Assembly: GCA_019745325.1 (NCBI GenBank)
Contig: JAIETK010000001.1
Location: 1 to 64,000 of the forward strand
Length of the DNA stretch: 64,000 nt
Direction of reading: 5' to 3'
DNA from: Nitrosomonas sp.
GTDB lineage: Bacteria; Pseudomonadota; Gammaproteobacteria; Burkholderiales; Nitrosomonadaceae
The position numbers and the translations under genes are program-made. Positions 1,470-10,150 of this stretch are shown piece by piece; positions within the stretch are counted from its first letter, which is position 1, and every line of letters begins with the position of its first letter. The notes under the pieces were generated by a model that saw nothing but the letters and a program-made list of their open reading frames with translations, was not told the origin of the DNA and made no database searches.

Positions 1470-2165
1470 ATGCGATTAGGAATACTTGAAGACGAGCCCA
1501 CTCAAATAGCCATCTATGAGCTACTATTTTCCCACGCGCACTACCAATGTGAGATTTTTGAATCGATTGCCGTGTTTCTTCAGGCGCTGAAAGAGCAAAA
1601 ATTCGATTTGCTGGTGCTGGACTGGATGCTCCCTGATGGCACAGCGGAAGAAGTACTTAAATGGGTTCGCGGAAACTACAGTTGGCATATTCCGATCATT
1701 TGCGTGACATCGCGCGATAGCGAAGCAGACGTTGTGCATGTCCTACATATGGGTGCCGACGATTATTTTGTAAAATCGACCCGGCACTTTGAATTACTCG
1801 CCAGAATCGAATCACTGACACGCCGCAATCGTGAAAAACAATCATCTGTCGCTCATTTCGGACCCTATGCAATCGACTACGACAACCAAGAAATCACTGT
1901 AGCAGGAAAAAACACCGGACTGACGCAAAAAGAATTCTCACTCGCAAACTACCTTTTTCAAAATCAAAACAAACTCCTGTCGAGAATTCACTTACTCGAA
2001 AAAATCTGGGGATTGTCGGCTGAAATTGATACCCGCACAGTTGATACACATATTAGCCGTCTCCGTAACAAACTTCAGTTCACCCCGCAAAGTCAATGGG
2101 ATATCGTCACCATTTACGGTTACGGCTACCGGCTGCAAAACGCCAAAGTAGCGGAATTCGCATAA
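1470..2165 (+). CDS. OmpR/PhoB-family response regulator
   Basis: This 231-residue two-component response regulator would be phosphorylated by a sensor kinase and then bind DNA. The N-terminal receiver domain (about 1-118) has the acidic pocket E7-D8, the phospho-acceptor D51 in LDWMLPDG, and the conserved Thr and Lys (VTS near 80, VKS near 102). A C-terminal winged-helix domain (about 128-226) ends with the usual GYGYRL motif. No histidine kinase is adjacent, so it is an orphan here and its target is unknown. Length is normal. A strong terminator follows the stop codon. Confidence 0.9.
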   Translation: MRLGILEDEPTQIAIYELLFSHAHYQCEIFESIAVFLQALKEQKFDLLVLDWMLPDGTAEEVLKWVRGNYSWHIPIICVTSRDSEADVVHVLHMGADDYFVKSTRHFELLARIESLTRRNREKQSSVAHFGPYAIDYDNQEITVAGKNTGLTQKEFSLANYLFQNQNKLLSRIHLLEKIWGLSAEIDTRTVDTHISRLRNKLQFTPQSQWDIVTIYGYGYRLQNAKVAEFA

Positions 2166-2924: not shown

Positions 2925-5768
2925 CTAGCCAGCAATCCCCGTATGTTGCAAAATCACATCGCGGGTTCTTGCAGGTTCGAACACCACATCGAAGCACCAC
3001 TGCCCAAAACCGCCCTGTTCGTTGACCGTCTTGATCCAAACTGCCATCGCGGCACGCTTCACACGATTGCGCTCATCATCAACGCCTTTCACTTCCAGTA
3101 CCAGCGTTTTGCCGTTATTCAAGCGGATCAAATAATCCGGCACGAAATTGCGCGAAGAGCCGCGCCACAAATAGCGGACGACAAAATCCAGATGATCGTT
3201 CTTAGCCCACGCCAGCACTTGCGGCACTTTCTCGCACAAATCCGCCACCGCCTTCTCCCACGCGCTGTCGTACACCACATGGCTGATCTGCGACCGTACC
3301 GTCGCCTGACACGGACGAGTCGTCACCCATGACCGCATACGTGCCGTCGATCCGATCGGGAACAACTCATCGAACACGGCTTCCAGCTTCTCGGTATTAT
3401 GCAAGGTCACAAACCGATTCACATGCCCGACCACGGTATCCATATTCAACGCGAACAAAATCTGCTTACGCACCGGATCTTGATGCCACACGCTGGGAAT
3501 GTTCAATTTGTCGCTGTTCAAGAATTGCTCGACGATGCGGATCAACTGTACCGCCAAAAACTGCTTATCACCACCAAAACTATCCGCGTTGTGCAGATAC
3601 AGTTTTCGTGCCGCGCGGAAGATCAGGTTTTGCAAACGGAAGTCATCTAATGCCTGCTCGAGATCGATTTCCGATGCCATCGCCAGGTTGGCAAAACCGG
3701 TCAGCGACGGCGCTACTTCGGCATTCAGCGGCGTTTGCATCGGATCGAGCGTCAATGCTTCGACGCGCTCCCAATCCAATACCAATTCCGGCTTCAATAC
3801 ATGGTCGACGCGCTGAATATTCGGCCAGCGTATTTCCAGATGATTGCGATCCGGCTCCACCTCGATGCGCACGCTCGGCTTGGGCGGGCGCACTCCGGTT
3901 TCACCATCCTCGCTGATTTCCTGGAAAATCGACAGCGGTACGCCGAAAATATTGACGTACTCAGGCAGCAGCAAGCCTTGCTCATCCATGTCGTGCGCCA
4001 CGCGCCGCAAACCGCGCCCGATCACCTGCTCACACAGCAATTGACTGGTAAATGCACGCAATCCCATGATATGCGTCACATTCGCCGCATCCCAGCCTTC
4101 CGACAACATTGCCACCGAAATGACGTTCTGCAACCGCTGCCCCGGCTGCCCGCGTTTGCCGACGCTATCGACCAGCGCGCGCAATTGCTCCTGCTGCTTC
4201 AATGCCAGTAAATCTTGCGCTTTGTCGGACGGCAACCCGGCAGCTTCGATAATCGCCGTCAAGCGTTGCTCGTAGTCGGCATCTGTGGTTACAGTTTCGC
4301 CGCGCTCGGCTTTTTCCAGCACGCGCGAATCGACCCGCAGCGTTTTCTCCGGTGCTTGCGTGCTTTTGATCAGACAATCACCGCTGTTGAAAAACTGTTC
4401 GATACGCGCCGCCGTCTCGGTGCGGTTGCACACCGTCAGCAAAACCGGCGGAATGGTATGTCCGCTGTCCACCCACGCTTGCGCGGTCTCGCGCCAGTCG
4501 TACGCCAGAATCGCATACGCTTTCTGCACCAGATCGGGCAGCGGATCGGTCACCGCCGCCTTGCGGTTCAAATCCTGGCTGACTTCGGCCTCGCGGTACA
4601 AGTGATACAACTTGCTGCGGTAACTCTTGGCGTTCGGCAACGCATCGTCGCGCACCACGATGCGCGGCGTTTTGACCAAACCCGCTTCGATGGCATCGTT
4701 CAAGCCGAAATCGGAAATGATCCACGAAAACAACCCGGCCTCGGTGTTGGTCTTACCGGTCGGAGTGAACGGCGTCGCCGACAGATCGAAGCAGCGGCGG
4801 ATGCGCCGGGTTTTATGGATACGATCCAGACCATCGATCCAGCGCGTTGCCTCGTCCAGGTCGATGCCCAGTTCTTCCGCTTCCTTCTTGCTGATTTTCA
4901 GCTCCGCCGGTTTACGGTAGGCGTGGTGCGCTTCGTCGTTGATCACGACCAGATCCTTGTGCGCCGCTAATCCGCCCAGCACGCGGCGGGTGAACGCTTC
5001 ATCGCTTTCACGGCCTTTCTTGACCACCGAGCGGTCTTGCTCTTTCAGCGGCATCAACGTATGCCAATTCTCGATCAGCAACTCGGCTTGGTTCAACCGT
5101 TGCCGCAGCGCCTCGTTCGGGCACAGGTGGAATTCGTCGTAAACATTCTGCTCATGGCCGGGATACAGCACCTGTAAGCGGCTTTTGACCGTCAGCCCCG
5201 GTGCGACGATGAATACCGCCTTGGAAAAACGCGCATCCTTGGGATAATGCAGCGCGTTCAGTGCTTGCCAGGTGATGATCAATGCCATCACCGAGGTTTT
5301 GCCGGAACCGGTCGCCATCTTGTTGCAAATGCGCTCCCACGGCCCGCCGTCGCCCGGCAGAAAAATCCCTTGCCTGAAGTCCTGCGGTGCCTCCAACCAC
5401 CAGATCAGCGCTTCAATCGCTTCCAGCTGGCAAAAATAAAAAGGATACTGCCGTGGCCCGCCGATCCAGCGTTTTTCCTCGCTGTTCCATTTGCCGCGTT
5501 CCCGCCAATGTTCCAATAATTGCCACGTCACGCTGGTGACACCCGGCCAACCGGCTTCGCGCCAGGCATCCAGCCGCTCGCGGATAGCGTTGACGCGCGC
5601 CAGCTTTTCCACCCGCCGGGTGTTGGTGCGCGTGTCGTACAATTCATACGCCGCTGGACGGCGGCCCGATTGGATGCTGAGCAACTTGCCGTTGTCGTCC
5701 TGATCCCAGTAGCGATCGGGTTTCAGGTACGGCGAATTGATGATCAGCGACGAAGGTTTGCCGGTCAT
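2925..5768 (-). CDS. res: Type III-like restriction enzyme, Res subunit (helicase-nuclease)
   Basis: This 947-residue protein is the DNA translocase and nuclease half of a type III-like restriction system. Superfamily 2 helicase motifs are intact: Walker A ATGSGKTS at 152-159, DEAH at 278-281, SAT at 330-332, and the motif VI-like QVIGRGLRR. The C-terminus carries a PD-(D/E)xK nuclease site with P877-D878, E892 and K894. The whole frame looks undamaged. It resembles the BPTD_3080-type Res family (recalled, not searched). It lies 8 bases after the remnant of its Mod gene. The partner methyltransferase is broken, so the enzyme may be inactive, or may work with another specificity protein. Confidence 0.88.
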   Translation of the reverse strand: MTGKPSSLIINSPYLKPDRYWDQDDNGKLLSIQSGRRPAAYELYDTRTNTRRVEKLARVNAIRERLDAWREAGWPGVTSVTWQLLEHWRERGKWNSEEKRWIGGPRQYPFYFCQLEAIEALIWWLEAPQDFRQGIFLPGDGGPWERICNKMATGSGKTSVMALIITWQALNALHYPKDARFSKAVFIVAPGLTVKSRLQVLYPGHEQNVYDEFHLCPNEALRQRLNQAELLIENWHTLMPLKEQDRSVVKKGRESDEAFTRRVLGGLAAHKDLVVINDEAHHAYRKPAELKISKKEAEELGIDLDEATRWIDGLDRIHKTRRIRRCFDLSATPFTPTGKTNTEAGLFSWIISDFGLNDAIEAGLVKTPRIVVRDDALPNAKSYRSKLYHLYREAEVSQDLNRKAAVTDPLPDLVQKAYAILAYDWRETAQAWVDSGHTIPPVLLTVCNRTETAARIEQFFNSGDCLIKSTQAPEKTLRVDSRVLEKAERGETVTTDADYEQRLTAIIEAAGLPSDKAQDLLALKQQEQLRALVDSVGKRGQPGQRLQNVISVAMLSEGWDAANVTHIMGLRAFTSQLLCEQVIGRGLRRVAHDMDEQGLLLPEYVNIFGVPLSIFQEISEDGETGVRPPKPSVRIEVEPDRNHLEIRWPNIQRVDHVLKPELVLDWERVEALTLDPMQTPLNAEVAPSLTGFANLAMASEIDLEQALDDFRLQNLIFRAARKLYLHNADSFGGDKQFLAVQLIRIVEQFLNSDKLNIPSVWHQDPVRKQILFALNMDTVVGHVNRFVTLHNTEKLEAVFDELFPIGSTARMRSWVTTRPCQATVRSQISHVVYDSAWEKAVADLCEKVPQVLAWAKNDHLDFVVRYLWRGSSRNFVPDYLIRLNNGKTLVLEVKGVDDERNRVKRAAMAVWIKTVNEQGGFGQWCFDVVFEPARTRDVILQHTGIAG

Positions 5769-5776
5769 GGCGATGT

Positions 5777-7171
5777 TTACACCGTATCCAGCCGGATGAC
5801 TTTGAGTGATTCGATGCCGCGATCATCGACGATTTTGACCGCGATGCATTCGTTTTCTCCGGCGGCAAACGGCAGCGACACCGTGCCGTGGAATTGCTCC
5901 AGCAGATCTCCGTTGAGTTCGGCGCGGATATCCTTGCGCAATTTGTTCCAGCCGTCCTTCGCGCCCGCCAGCGGGAAAAACACCTGGCGCGGAAACAGCG
6001 AGCGGTTATCGTAATCAGTATCCAGCGCCCACATCGCAATGTTCTTCTTGCCGCCGGATTTGAGTTCGCCGGTTTTGGTATCGAAATAATCAAAGCCGCG
6101 CACTTCAACCCGGAATTGTCCATCTTTAAGTTGCTGCACCAGTACGTCCGGCTGACCCATGAGCCAGAACGATTCGTTGCTGGCACGGCCCTTTTTCAGA
6201 TCCTCGGTCAGCAAGTCGGTGTTCATCTGCGCTTTCAGCGCGGTGATACCCTTGATATTGTCGATGTCCTTGGCTGCTTCCGGGTCGAAGGTAAACGCGC
6301 AAAACACCAGCAATTTCGGCAGCGGAAACAATTCGCCCGCCTCGCGCATGGCGATTTCCACCTGCCGCTGTTCCAATGCCGCGTGTTCCGGCCCGAAGCT
6401 CACCGCCACCCTGTCGCCGCTTTCCGCCACCGTGCCGGTGGCATGGATGTATTTCGCGCCGGGCAGCGGCGTCAGGTCGATCAGTTGTATCTTCTGCCCG
6501 CCTTTGCCGCGAATGCCTGCTTTCAGCAATTCATCGCGCCATTGCGCATGGCGTGACGTCGCGCCGGAACGCGCCACCGCGACATCCGCCTGCTTCGGCT
6601 GTTCGGCTTCGTCCAATCCCAGCACAGTAGCAAACGGCACCGCCTCCACCGTGAACGGCCCGGTGATGCGTAACTTTCTTTTCGACACCGCCGGTTGGTC
6701 GTACAGAATCTCGGAATCGGCGTGCGCGGCAATCGATGCATCCATTTGCTTCTGCATCGCCTGCCGCGCGACGTGGAATTCGTCAAACGGTTTTCTGGTG
6801 AGTTCAGGCCAATAAACAGGGAAATCAAACGGCACTTGCCATTCCATCAATGCGCCATTCCCCTGATCGTCATGCCCGCGAAGGCGGGCATCCATAGCCT
6901 TTGCCGAATCACTGGATTCCCGCTTGCGCGGGAATGACGACGAATCCGAAAGAGTGGCATTCAACGCCGCAAACGCACTCTCAACCGCCGGGTGCATACG
7001 CGCATAAATCTCATCGATTTCGGGGTTGTTGGCGATGGATTTGAGCTTGACATGCGGCACGGTTTTGTAGATAAAACCGCTTTTCAAGCCTTCGTGCGGG
7101 TATTTGAGTTCGAAATAATCGTAACTGACAGTCATCAGCCGCTGCTTCGCCAATGTCCCCGCGACGCGCAA
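5777..7171 (-). pseudogene. mod: Type III-like DNA methyltransferase (Mod), C-terminal fragment
   Basis: This 464-codon frame matches the C-terminal part of the Mod subunits that pair with such Res proteins. It begins with the conserved segment RVAGTLAKQRL and includes YKTVPHVKLKSIANN and ITGPFTVEAVPFATVL, blocks I recall as lying after the methyltransferase core. No SAM-binding or DPPY motif is present, so it cannot methylate alone. The first possible start is a TTG; upstream the frame stays open to the HNH stop codon. A 72-bp REP element is inserted in frame at residues 78-101. I call it a pseudogene fragment, although its long open frame leaves a retained role as specificity or Res-binding domain possible. 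Confidence 0.8.
6868..6939. repeat. REP-type palindromic repeat inside the mod fragment
   Basis: Two short palindromes face each other: ATGCCCGCGAAGGCGGGCAT and ATTCCCGCTTGCGCGGGAAT, flanked by CGTCA and TGACG. This is the common bacterial repeat whose translation gives FPRKRESS and DARLRGHDD. It is 72 bases long, so it keeps the mod frame open while adding 24 codons. Such elements are usually intergenic; inside a coding frame it suggests relaxed selection. Confidence 0.88.
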
Positions 7172-7219
7172 AGTGCAAGAAGTGATTAAGAATGAAGAAA
7201 AATTAGCGCTCTCAAACTC

Positions 7220-8137
7220 CTAATCGACATAAACATTTTCGTTATGCCAACGCAGATACTCTTCCGATGGCCTCTCAATTTGTCGTTCCGGAATGGTTGC
7301 AAGTTTCTGTCCATGCAATCGATAGTATGCTTTTCCATTAAACCATTCTTCTTTAATGCGTGAACTCACTTCTATCAGGAATTGCGGCGTTACTGTAACC
7401 AAGCCCAAGTCAAATAATTTATGAAAATCAGATCGAAGTAAGAGCCCATTAGATGTACTGTTTGGACCGTATTTTGAGTATGGCTTTATATGTGCGGCTT
7501 CGAGAACAGGTAAAGTATGCTCGCCAGTAATTGCACATTTGCGTTGATACGCTTCTGTTACTAGTACACGGAATGTTCCTTGTCCCAGACGTGCTCTGGC
7601 TAAATAGGCTTCACCATATCTCGCTTCAAACGTGCCCATTTGAGACTGCATTTGCTCAGGTGCGCTAATATGGTGTTGAACGGTATGCCACAAATTATTG
7701 CCAATCTGACTTGTTGTATCATAAGTTTTCCCTCGAACAATGTTTCCTAACCAATCTGAAGGTGCTTCAATCCATAAATCTGGCAAGAAAAATATTGGAG
7801 AAGAAAGAATGCTGCATCCAATTTCAAGCAAACCAATTTTTGTTGTTCCCATTAATGGACGAACGAGTTGCTCAAATTCATCATAATTGCCTGCACCGTT
7901 TTTTTCACCGAATACTTCCCATGCCATAGTCAGAGGCAATTTTACATACTTAACGAAATAGCCAAGTCCAGCAATGTGATTATTAGGACGCTTCAACTTG
8001 AATAGAAAAGGTGTTCCCGCTTCCAAGTTCGTAAAAGGCGGTGTGCCACTTGGCGACCAAAAATTAACTTCATCAAAATTTCGCTCAGATAAAAACTTGT
8101 ACCAGCTATTATCCGTGACACCCACCCAGTATTTCAT
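7220..8137 (-). CDS. HNH endonuclease with N-terminal PUA/EVE-like domain
   Basis: This 305-residue protein has a C-terminal HNH_2-type nuclease domain (about 198-245): CAITGEH, then AAHIKPY with H216, N230, and H239 in FHKLFDLG. The N-terminal part (about 1-130, MKYWVGVTD, then NFW and FLFKLKRP) looks like a PUA/EVE-fold domain of the kind that reads modified bases, so a modification-dependent restriction role is plausible but inferred. The gene is visibly more AT-rich than the res and mod DNA on both sides, which suggests horizontal acquisition. It sits exactly where the Mod catalytic core should be. Its TAG stop is in frame with the Mod C-terminal fragment. Confidence 0.82.
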   Translation of the reverse strand: MKYWVGVTDNSWYKFLSERNFDEVNFWSPSGTPPFTNLEAGTPFLFKLKRPNNHIAGLGYFVKYVKLPLTMAWEVFGEKNGAGNYDEFEQLVRPLMGTTKIGLLEIGCSILSSPIFFLPDLWIEAPSDWLGNIVRGKTYDTTSQIGNNLWHTVQHHISAPEQMQSQMGTFEARYGEAYLARARLGQGTFRVLVTEAYQRKCAITGEHTLPVLEAAHIKPYSKYGPNSTSNGLLLRSDFHKLFDLGLVTVTPQFLIEVSSRIKEEWFNGKAYYRLHGQKLATIPERQIERPSEEYLRWHNENVYVD

Positions 8138-8532
8138 ATCTTTCTTGCCTGCTTACTGTTATCCAATTCCATTACATTGCTGATCAAGTTCTCAATGGTA
8201 GCGCGCTGGCTGTCGAATTGCAGCGCCGGATCGATATGCGGATCGTAGCGTCAGACGGTTTTACCCTCGATGCCATCGGAATGCGTATCGACCATGCCGA
8301 CGTGCGGATTGTTGGTGCGTTTGTCGTCGTGGCGATAACTGAGCACTTCGGCGGCTTGCTCGCCAGTGTTTGCGCGCCCGGTTGAGTTTTTTGCAGCCGG
8401 TGCTTTCTTCGTAGCCGGTGTACTTGGCGATGACAACTGCGGCTCAAGACCGAATTCATCATCCGGCAGCATCTCCTGCCGTGGTTCCCGGTTGCCGCCG
8501 GGAGGGTTCGTTTTGTTATCGTTTGCCGTCAT
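8134..8532 (-). pseudogene. mod: Type III-like Mod, N-terminal fragment with premature stop
   Basis: From an ATG at 8532 the frame encodes a Mod-type N-terminus (MTANDNKTNPPGGNREPRQ, later DDKRTNNPHVGMVDTHSDG). After EGKTV it meets TGA at 8253-8251. Reading through, the same frame continues RYDPHIDPALQFD and then IENLI, the order I recall in intact family members, where a Trp (TGG) stands at the TGA position. After about 8181 the sequence no longer resembles Mod and runs into the HNH gene, whose ATG overlaps the final TGA of this frame. It is therefore a truncated 5' remnant of mod with a point nonsense mutation. Confidence 0.75.
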
Positions 8533-8590: not shown

Positions 8591-9157
8591 TCAGTTTTGC
8601 AGTAAATCGTTCACTGCCGCCCGATCAAAATGCTCGGGATCGAACGGTTCGCCGAGCCATTCGAGTACGTCGGCATGTTCCGGGTGATTGGGATCGGCAA
8701 TCGCTTCGAGCAGCATTTCGTAACCTGGCGGGCCGCCGATATCTTCCGGCGGGCAGGCGCGGCTGCCTTTGAGGCAAGCCGGTAATTTGGTTTGGGTATC
8801 AAACGGCAGGATTTTTTCCAGCACGACTTCATGATCCCAGTCATCGCCGAAGTCGTAGGTATAACGCAATTTGTCTTTCTCCTGCTTCAGCACCTGATCG
8901 ATGCGGAATTTCGATTCATCGTGAATATCCGACGGAAAATCTTCGTCCGGCACACCGTAGCGTTCGCTTCCCTTGGCGAATTCGTGCAGATGCGAATCGG
9001 TCCAACCCATGACAATTTGCAGGGCAAGATGAAGATCCGCCAAGTTTTCGGTGCTGGCAATCACGAACCGGCGCCATACCGGCGGACGGATGCCGTTTAA
9101 TGTAACCTTGAATTGATAAATTGAACGCAAAGATTTGGCTATTGCTGGTTTCGCCAT
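8591..9157 (-). CDS. Plasmid pRiA4b ORF-3-like protein
   Basis: This protein of about 188 residues belongs to the pRiA4b ORF-3-like family, named from an Agrobacterium plasmid gene and of unknown biochemical role. Typical features are YQFKVTLNGIRPPVWRRF near the N-terminus, then LHLALQIVMGW and HLHEF, an acidic middle, and CPPEDIGGPPGYE near the C-terminus. The ATG at 9157 (MAKPAIAK) fits the family start; an upstream frame start at 9187 would add ten residues. It lies just upstream of the broken mod gene and may belong to the same mobile island, since the family is common on plasmids and in genomic islands. Confidence 0.85.
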   Translation of the reverse strand: MAKPAIAKSLRSIYQFKVTLNGIRPPVWRRFVIASTENLADLHLALQIVMGWTDSHLHEFAKGSERYGVPDEDFPSDIHDESKFRIDQVLKQEKDKLRYTYDFGDDWDHEVVLEKILPFDTQTKLPACLKGSRACPPEDIGGPPGYEMLLEAIADPNHPEHADVLEWLGEPFDPEHFDRAAVNDLLQN

Positions 9158-9240
9158 TAAAAGCTCCAAACTAAGTAATCGTATCACCGCTTCTTCAGAA
9201 TACCGGACAGCATTTAAGCGAATACGCGGCTGCTGATCAC

Positions 9241-9273
9241 TGGTATTGGTATTGGTATTGGTATTGGTATTGG
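9241..9273. repeat. Hexanucleotide tandem repeat (TGGTAT)5
   Basis: Five exact TGGTAT units plus TGG lie between the divergent pRiA4b-like gene and trmJ. It is a short tandem repeat that could change copy number by slippage. It is not in a coding frame; any effect on the flanking promoters is speculation. Confidence 0.9.
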
Positions 9274-9424: not shown

Positions 9425-10150
9425 ATGAATAGCCCTTGTCCGCTCGACAATATCCGCATTCTACTCAGCCATACCACCCACCCCGGCAACATCGGCGCGG
9501 CGGCGCGGGCGATGAAAACGATGGGACTTAGCTCGCTTTATTTGATTAATCCGGTGGCCTTCCCGGATAGAGAAGCGGATGCGCGTGCTGTCAGAGCACG
9601 CGATATTCTGGAGAAAGTAAAGGTATGCACTGAATTGGATGAGGCATTGGACAATACCGTGCTGAGTGCTGCGATCACCGCGCGGTCACGCGATCTTTCG
9701 CACGATGTTTTCGATGCACGGCAGGGCGCGCGGGAATTATTGCGTTATGCACGGCATCAACCGGTTGCTTTGCTGTTTGGCGCGGAAACCTCCGGACTGA
9801 CAACAGCGGAGGTCAGCAAGTGCCAGATGATTATCCATATTCCCGCAAATCCGGAGTTTACTTCGCTAAACCTGGCCAGCGCGGTGCAAGTTATGGCGTA
9901 TGAGTTGCGCATGGCACTGATGGAAAATGACGCACCTGCCACCCCGGTTGGATCACCGGCGAGTTTTAATGATCTGGAATTATTCTATGCGCATCTTGAG
10001 CAGGCGATGATCGCCAGCGATTTCCTCGACCCGGAAAAACCAAAATTGCTGATGCAACGCATCCGCCGTCTGTTTTCAAAGGCGCGGCTGGAAAAAGAGG
10101 AAGTGCAGATTTTGCGCGGAATTTTGACAGCGCTGGGCAAGCGCTGGTAA
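9425..10150 (+). CDS. trmJ: tRNA (cytidine/uridine-32-2'-O)-methyltransferase TrmJ
   Basis: This 241-residue SPOUT-class RNA methyltransferase is predicted to methylate the ribose of residue 32 in the tRNA anticodon loop using SAM. Family marks are the N-terminal IRILLSHTTHPGNIGAAARAMKTMG block, the LINP motif, and the knot motifs LLFGAETSGLT (near 120) and IPANPEFTSLNLASAVQ (near 140). Length is normal for TrmJ. It stands alone on the plus strand and converges with argB, 18 bases away. TrmJ is favoured over other SpoU-type paralogues because of the PGNIGAAARAMK signature. Confidence 0.9.
   Translation: MNSPCPLDNIRILLSHTTHPGNIGAAARAMKTMGLSSLYLINPVAFPDREADARAVRARDILEKVKVCTELDEALDNTVLSAAITARSRDLSHDVFDARQGARELLRYARHQPVALLFGAETSGLTTAEVSKCQMIIHIPANPEFTSLNLASAVQVMAYELRMALMENDAPATPVGSPASFNDLELFYAHLEQAMIASDFLDPEKPKLLMQRIRRLFSKARLEKEEVQILRGILTALGKRW

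What the first reader, a model, noticed from the sequence alone, without database searches (positions are those of the whole stretch)
5777..8532. Type III-like Mod gene whose catalytic core has been replaced by an HNH endonuclease gene
Seen: N- and C-terminal Mod pieces lie on the same strand at 8134-8532 and 5777-7171. Between about 7172 and 8181, where the SAM-binding and DPPY methyltransferase core should be, there is instead an AT-rich 305-codon HNH gene. Downstream, Res is intact. Known: in such loci Mod gives methylation and DNA recognition. Inference: the locus has been converted from classical modification-restriction to a different arrangement, with the HNH protein as nuclease and the Mod ends left as remnants. 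This is not a simple insertion, because the core is missing rather than split.
Basis: partly seen in the sequence, partly recalled or inferred. Interest (0 to 1): 0.75.

Follow-up and report, generated by a model that had tools for sequence, protein, structure and literature searches.

The report
Methylase core replaced by modification-dependent nuclease
In this bacterium the working middle of a DNA-methylating defence gene has been swapped for a foreign gene that looks like a nuclease for modified DNA, and a close relative carries a retron in almost the same spot, so one defence gene seems to serve as a landing place for others.

Summary
Against the closest intact relative (L056), 1,338 bp of mod (codons 142-587, the catalytic core) are missing and 1,013 bp of AT-rich DNA with one 305-codon gene stand there; Res is intact. 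The gene belongs to a large family with a predicted PUA-superfamily (ASCH/EVE-like) sensor and an HNH nuclease, as in the modification-dependent enzyme VcaM4I. Two additions raise the interest. (1) In a Thiogranum MAG (Gammaproteobacteria) a 79%-identical gene also lies between a mod N-terminal scrap and a mod motif-I scrap, with the 3' junction at nearly the same mod position. (2) In a same-species genome a type II-A retron follows the mod N-terminus, 7 codons from our junction, replacing mod and three quarters of res. Four of 46 other loci read have an empty slot. Best reading: mod-res is an acceptor locus overwritten by other defence genes. Sensor specificity, activity, and any role of the orphan Mod C-terminus and Res are untested.

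The parts
8591..9187 (-). pRiA4b ORF-3-like gene, frequent neighbour of the slot
   Evidence: PF07929 E 5.7e-69; beside trmJ also in loci without mod-res (L117, L121, L129, L130)
8182..8532 (-). mod N-terminal remnant (up to about codon 141 of the intact gene), with an in-frame TGA at 8253-8251
   Evidence: tblastn and blastn to intact mods, sharp end at 8182
8138..8181 (-). 44-bp leader without mod homology; mod N frame ends in TGA overlapping the HNH start codon (ATGA)
   Evidence: alignment; translation
7220..8137 (-). PUA-HNH nuclease gene, 305 codons, in place of the mod catalytic core
7169..7219 (-). 3' junction spacer; faint mod similarity (ITxxTxRVA) begins inside it
5777..7171 (-). 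mod C-terminal remnant, open for 464 codons, conserved residues kept
   Evidence: PADLOC MTase_III positions 615-982 of 983; dN/dS 0.074-0.109; 4 of 248 conserved sites changed
2925..5768 (-). res, open, BPTD_3080 family
   Evidence: NF046055 1141.5 bits, cut-off 800; 90% identical to L056 Res
9425..10150 (+). trmJ-like gene, flank used to locate the slot in other genomes
   Evidence: the gene name is recalled from the sequence type, not given by a call
1470..2165 (+). response-regulator-like gene, other flank of the slot in this and several other genomes
   Evidence: next to trmJ or the pRiA4 gene in 4 loci with an empty slot; not seen behind mod-res in L057 and L060; the name is recalled, not given by a call

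Best explanation
A mod-res operon sat in a chromosomal slot next to trmJ and the pRiA4-ORF3 gene. Recombination replaced the catalytic core of mod with a foreign AT-rich gene for a PUA-HNH endonuclease (replacement: shown; a single event: inferred). The new gene lies in the old operon position, its start codon overlapping the stop of the truncated mod frame, so it is probably expressed from mod's signals (inferred). The protein most likely works alone as a type IV-like enzyme: its N-terminal PUA-superfamily domain senses a modified base in invading DNA and its HNH domain then cuts (inferred from fold and family). Res has lost its methylase partner and is probably idle (inferred). Replacing the host's own methylase by a nuclease for modified DNA would avoid an epigenetic conflict, if the nuclease can read that methylase's mark (inference). 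The same locus took a type II-A retron in a same-species strain, so the mod-res operon behaves as an acceptor site for defence genes.
For: Junctions against intact relatives: 446 codons lost, 1,013 bp gained. Domain and fold evidence for PUA-HNH; H216, N230 and H239 invariant in 31 of 31 aligned sequences (that these are the HNH residues is recalled). Large family: 7,615 hits among 7,999 candidates scored. Recurrence in L003 (Thiogranum): HNH 79% identical; mod N-terminal scrap upstream, the only hit above threshold among 1,481 ORFs of 5 loci, E 3.5e-5; mod motif-I scrap, 57-60% identical, 30 bp downstream of the stop (E 1.5e-6 with L005 Mod). Possible third case: HNH P0030 and Mod C-terminus P0128 are both listed on a contig of 18,696 bases. 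Slot content varies: retron II-A in 2 of 46 loci read, empty slot in 4 of 46. Conflict precedent: PMC8989522 (passages).
Against: No activity, target modification or expression is known. Pfam shows no sensor domain at E up to 1; the sensor rests on a model (block pLDDT 87-94 over residues 1-90, 76-94 over 91-160, below 50 over 160-210; pTM 0.53), and the VcaM4I alignment has rmsd 15 A because the two halves are placed differently. The characterised EVE-HNH enzymes read modified cytosine (PMC7897488) whereas this Mod family is named adenine-specific, so the conflict idea needs an untested specificity. The Mod C-terminus and Res show no decay: the swap is recent or they are still used. The mod setting rests on two well-read loci: only our genome has a match at E 1e-50 among 149 relatives (which did not include G149), and none of 13 other order-level hits is mod-flanked. 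In one search another locus, L020, also matched the same Mod region (E 9e-6 to 2e-5, 28-37% identity), so the E-value of the L003 scrap alone is not special; its identity and place are. P0030 lacks the first 61 HNH residues, so in that putative third case the gene may be broken.
Confidence: 0.6

Rival explanations
1. Composite system: the PUA-HNH protein, the Mod C-terminal piece and Res are kept together and work as one restriction system, with the PUA domain giving recognition, the Mod C-terminus docking Res, and Res translocating or cutting.
For: Mod C-terminus stays open for 464 codons with dN/dS 0.074-0.109 against four relatives, like those relatives among themselves at 0.090-0.105, and 4 of 248 conserved sites changed, within the range of the 31 other sequences (2 to 16). 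Res open. Other Mod C-terminal proteins (P0121, P0128, P0129) begin near the same junction.
Against: Relatives of the HNH gene do not come with this mod or res. In Thiogranum the mod scrap is decayed and no res is found in the 11.5 kb held. Pairwise dN/dS cannot separate a recent swap from lasting constraint. The Mod N-terminal piece has a stop codon.
Confidence: 0.12
2. Neutral graveyard: the mod-res locus was already dying and the HNH gene landed there by chance; no functional meaning in the pairing.
For: Res scraps are common: of 20 of 85 genus genomes with a Res relative of 73% identity or more, 12 hold only fragments, 4 of those at contig ends. Stop codon in the Mod N-terminus. Transposase-like genes (own reading) in the G020 slot.
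Against: Two of the three kinds of content found in the broken locus are defence genes by family (PUA-HNH; retron II-A); the third, an ATPase in L097, has only weak matches. Two HNH loci in different classes share the 3' junction to within about 17 codons. No decay in Mod C or Res here.
Confidence: 0.25
3. Assembly chimera or misread.
For: Sharp change in composition at both ends.
Against: Open frames, the same arrangement in L003 from another assembly and class, and a start codon overlapping the mod frame.
Confidence: 0.02

Closest known systems
EVE-HNH modification-dependent endonucleases (VcaM4I, TspA15I; PMC7897488, passages)
   Same: N-terminal PUA-superfamily domain plus C-terminal HNH domain, similar length (305 against 309 aa)
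   Different: Sequence match only in the HNH half (E 4.1e-5); sensor nearer to ASCH folds by Z (12.6) than to EVE 2eve (9.1); modification specificity unknown
Type III-like mod-res systems with BPTD_3080-family Res (NCBIfam NF046055)
   Same: Operon order and ends; Res open
   Different: Mod lacks its catalytic core, so no methylation is expected from it
PcaRCI R-M against methyl-dependent PcaRCII conflict (PMC8989522, passages)
   Same: A methylase and a mark-dependent nuclease that cannot both act freely in one cell
   Different: There the methylase silences the nuclease; here the nuclease gene occupies the methylase gene, and a shared mark is not shown
Defence hotspots with interchangeable systems (P2/P4 hotspots, PMC9122126; E. 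coli islands, PMC10121019; search listing and start of abstract seen only)
   Same: Fixed flanks, changing defence content
   Different: Here the exchange cuts inside a defence gene and leaves its two ends as flanks

Membership tests
Type III restriction-modification | Mod subunit with DPPY and SAM-binding motifs | tested here: not met
   Core absent between 7169 and 8181; tblastn of two intact Mods and mapping
Type III restriction-modification | Res helicase-nuclease subunit | tested here: met
   PF04851 E 2e-8; NF046055 above cut-off
PUA-superfamily-HNH modification-dependent endonuclease | HNH nuclease domain with conserved residues | tested here: met
   PF13391 50 bits, cut-off 21; H216, N230, H239 invariant in 31 of 31
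PUA-superfamily-HNH modification-dependent endonuclease | N-terminal PUA-superfamily fold | tested here: met
PUA-superfamily-HNH modification-dependent endonuclease | Cleavage depends on a modified base | not testable with these tools
   Needs protein and modified DNA
EVE domain family proper | Match to the EVE rather than another PUA-superfamily family | tested here: inconclusive
   No sensor family in Pfam at E up to 1; ASCH and EVE folds both match
Phosphorothioate-dependent restriction endonuclease (NF045808) | Score above the curated cut-off | tested here: not met
   76.3 bits, cut-off 180, HNH half only
Type II-A retron (in relative L066, not in the window) | Retron RT plus nucleoside deoxyribosyltransferase-like gene | tested here: met
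   RT_II-A E 2e-186, NDT_II-A E 6.7e-54
Type II-A retron (in relative L066, not in the window) | msr-msd non-coding RNA | tested here: inconclusive
   Best Rfam match E 0.24, an unrelated family, in L066 4600-7300

The most novel reading that the evidence does not exclude
Mod genes of this family act as docking genes: their conserved ends (and the Res C-terminus) survive as anchors through which whole defence modules - a PUA-HNH nuclease, a retron - are exchanged by recombination, and the mod-to-PUA-HNH swap is a recurring switch that turns a strain from marking its own DNA to attacking marked DNA at one locus.
Probability: 0.3. Interest if true: 0.7.

Novelty: new variant of a known kind. Interest (0 to 1): 0.52.

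Why it matters
Nucleases that attack modified DNA and methylases that make the mark cannot both act freely in one cell. A locus in which such a nuclease gene physically takes a methylase gene's place, in two bacterial classes, would make that conflict testable with natural alleles. The retron in the same gene of a same-species strain shows defence turnover inside a defence gene, with its two ends left as flanks; surveys that count whole systems could overlook this (inference).

Tried and rejected
Looked for a second copy of the Mod C-terminus in the own genome: none. HNH gene in viral contigs: 6 pattern matches, 0 relatives; in phages 12 records with partial matches, 0 covering 80% of the query. 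More mod-flanked HNH loci: 0 of 13 further order-level hits and 0 of 1 further class-level hit have mod or res within up to about 1.5 kb; some of these loci are cut by contig ends, and part of the printed ORF list was cut, its tblastn table not. Plasmids: 1,429 records match, 4 over 80% of the query; those 4 were read: near integrases, in two frames beside a HipA-like gene, on a small plasmid, and behind a type ISP enzyme. L002: HNH gene, HepT-like gene and a MazG-like gene (own reading) between a 564-aa protein matching 193 positions of the 1,024-position DUF499 model and a helicase without its N-terminal part: suggestive of another overwrite, not proven. Repeats at the junctions: only short two-copy matches. 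Promoter and terminator scan: no more than shuffles give. Structure of the Mod C-terminus: pLDDT 61.8, not used. The N-terminal scrap of L003 was not significant by tblastn on plasmids (E 2-8); only a profile made it so. dN/dS of the HNH gene could not be computed, synonymous sites saturated; res dS also exceeds 1 in 8 of 10 pairs, so its ratios are rough. Simple insertion was rejected because 446 codons are missing; a target-domain swap because the DPPY and SAM motifs are gone as well.

Literature: (8 searches). None listed, by title or start of abstract, a paper on an HNH or retron gene inside a mod gene; two searches returned nothing, and only the top of longer lists was shown. (PMC2853133) is not held and was not read.

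Full report
What is there. On the minus strand the order is pRiA4 ORF-3-like gene (9187-8591), mod N-terminal remnant (8532-8182), PUA-HNH gene (8137-7220), mod C-terminal remnant (7171-5777), res (5768-2925). Two intact Mods of 1,079 and 1,081 aa from plasmid records (L005, L004) align to the two remnants and, beyond chance-level hits, to nothing in between. The nearest intact operon, L056 from a same-genus genome, gives the junctions: window 8182 pairs with L056 4757 and window 7168 with L056 6096, so 1,338 bp (codons 142-587) are gone and 1,013 bp stand in their place. L057, L058 and L060 give the same N-side end to within 1 bp, and with L059 the same C-side end to within 7 bp; L061 and L062 do not reach the junction. 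The motif names DPPY and SAM-binding are recalled; the motifs can be read in the intact Mods printed.

Decay and expression. The N-terminal remnant has a TGA at 8253-8251 where four relatives and the same-species genome G149 have TGG. Read past that stop, its frame ends in TGA overlapping the HNH start codon. The HNH gene is 41% GC with GC3 0.33, against 57% and 0.69 for the mod C piece. Pairwise dN/dS of the mod C piece against four relatives is 0.074-0.109, and among those four 0.090-0.105; for res 0.047-0.066 against 0.053-0.086, with high dS. At sites conserved in 90% or more of the other 31 sequences the window piece differs at 4 of 248, within the range of the rest (2 to 16). So the pieces are either recently orphaned or still used; these numbers cannot tell which.

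Recurrence. L003, a Thiogranum MAG (Gammaproteobacteria), has a 79%-identical gene. Downstream, 30 bp after its stop, lies a decayed copy of mod codons 571-610, 57-60% identical. In the same an unrelated locus, L020, matched this Mod region with a similar E-value but 28-37% identity. Upstream of the L003 gene a 41-residue frame begins like the mod N-terminus: a profile of 114 Mod N-termini finds it alone above threshold among 1,481 ORFs from 5 loci, E 3.5e-5; single-sequence tblastn did not find it significant. Thus the same gene sits between mod ends in two classes, with the 3' junctions within about 17 codons of each other and different 5' junctions. A third case is possible, but only from contig lengths: P0030 (HNH, first 61 residues missing) and P0128 (mod C-terminus starting MTLAKQR) are both listed on a contig of 18,696 bases. 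P0121 begins at the same residue as P0128, and P0129 close to it.

The slot. In 85 genus genomes (our own included) the Mod C-terminus has a match in 16 (8 of them at 82% identity or more) and Res in 34 (20 at 73% or more: 7 complete, 1 in two frames, 12 fragments, of which 4 touch contig ends). I read the stretch upstream of trmJ in 46 loci, the window not counted: 40 fetched for the purpose and 6 fetched earlier. Four have trmJ (with or without the pRiA4 gene) next to the response regulator with no mod or res (L109, L121, L129, L130); 2 have mod and res (L057, L060 with a frameshift in mod), in which the response regulator was not seen; 2 have mod N-terminus, type II-A retron and Res C-terminus (L066, L099); 1 has an ATPase-like frame split by a transposase-like one, then Res from residue 514 (L097); 1 has a 41-residue Res scrap (L106); 1 has broken mod-res 9.5 kb away (L124); the other 35 show no mod or res near trmJ, some because the contig ends. 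The retron of L066 is called by PADLOC models RT_II-A (E 2e-186) and NDT_II-A (E 6.7e-54). L066 is from a genome listed as the same species as ours; its mod N-terminus ends 7 codons beyond ours.

How it probably works. Shown: replacement of the core, its boundaries, the domain make-up (in part by model), the recurrence in L003 and the retron alternative. Inferred: expression from mod signals, modification-dependent cutting, an idle Res, and avoidance of conflict with the lost methylase. The last has a gap: the characterised EVE-HNH enzymes read modified cytosine, while this Mod family is named adenine-specific by its sources. PMC8989522 (passages) documents a methylase-nuclease conflict in another bacterium, solved there by silencing. 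PMC7641849 (passages) describes EVE-HNH proteins as putative type IV enzymes and EVE or ASCH proteins beside R-M systems; it has no hit for 'type III'.

Verdict. The likelier meaning is overwriting of one defence gene by another, not a rebuilt mod-HNH-res machine; the latter is kept as a rival at 0.12. The host genus name comes from the finding and from the names of close protein matches; the window itself is unnamed.

Noticed in passing
L066:4481-7843 (G149:C1) and L099:9026-12359 (G005:C73): Type II-A retron in place of the mod body and about the first 710 residues of res, at nearly the same mod site, in a same-species and a same-genus genome.
   Followed up: yes
L097:7061-11162 (G020:C1): Same slot: an ATPase-like gene (weak STAND/P-loop matches) interrupted by a transposase-like gene, then another transposase-like gene (both by own reading) and a Res C-terminal piece.
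   Followed up: partly
window 6865-6945: Palindromic repeat (FPRKRESS...DARLRGHDD when translated) in frame inside the mod C-terminus; one copy in the window; present in some relatives (P0121, P0125, L056) and absent in others (P0126).
   Followed up: partly
L002:3401-9758: PUA-HNH, a HepT-like gene and a MazG-like gene (own reading) between a short DUF499-like protein and a helicase lacking its N-terminal part: perhaps another overwritten defence operon.
   Followed up: partly
L102:1453-1635, L103:974-1241, L104:12416-12595: Small Res C-terminal scraps near a valyl-tRNA synthetase-like gene (own reading) in three same-genus genomes, away from the trmJ slot.
   Followed up: no
window 9241-9273: Perfect TGGTAT hexamer repeat, 5.5 copies, between the pRiA4 gene and trmJ; a possible length-variable tract.
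   Followed up: no
L030:1465-5915: On a Mesorhizobium plasmid a 43%-identical PUA-HNH gene directly follows a type ISP restriction-modification gene.
   Followed up: no
L020:266-544: A match to the Mod motif-I region (28-37% identity) about 1 kb from an HNH gene in an order-level relative; another methylase beside an HNH gene.
   Followed up: no
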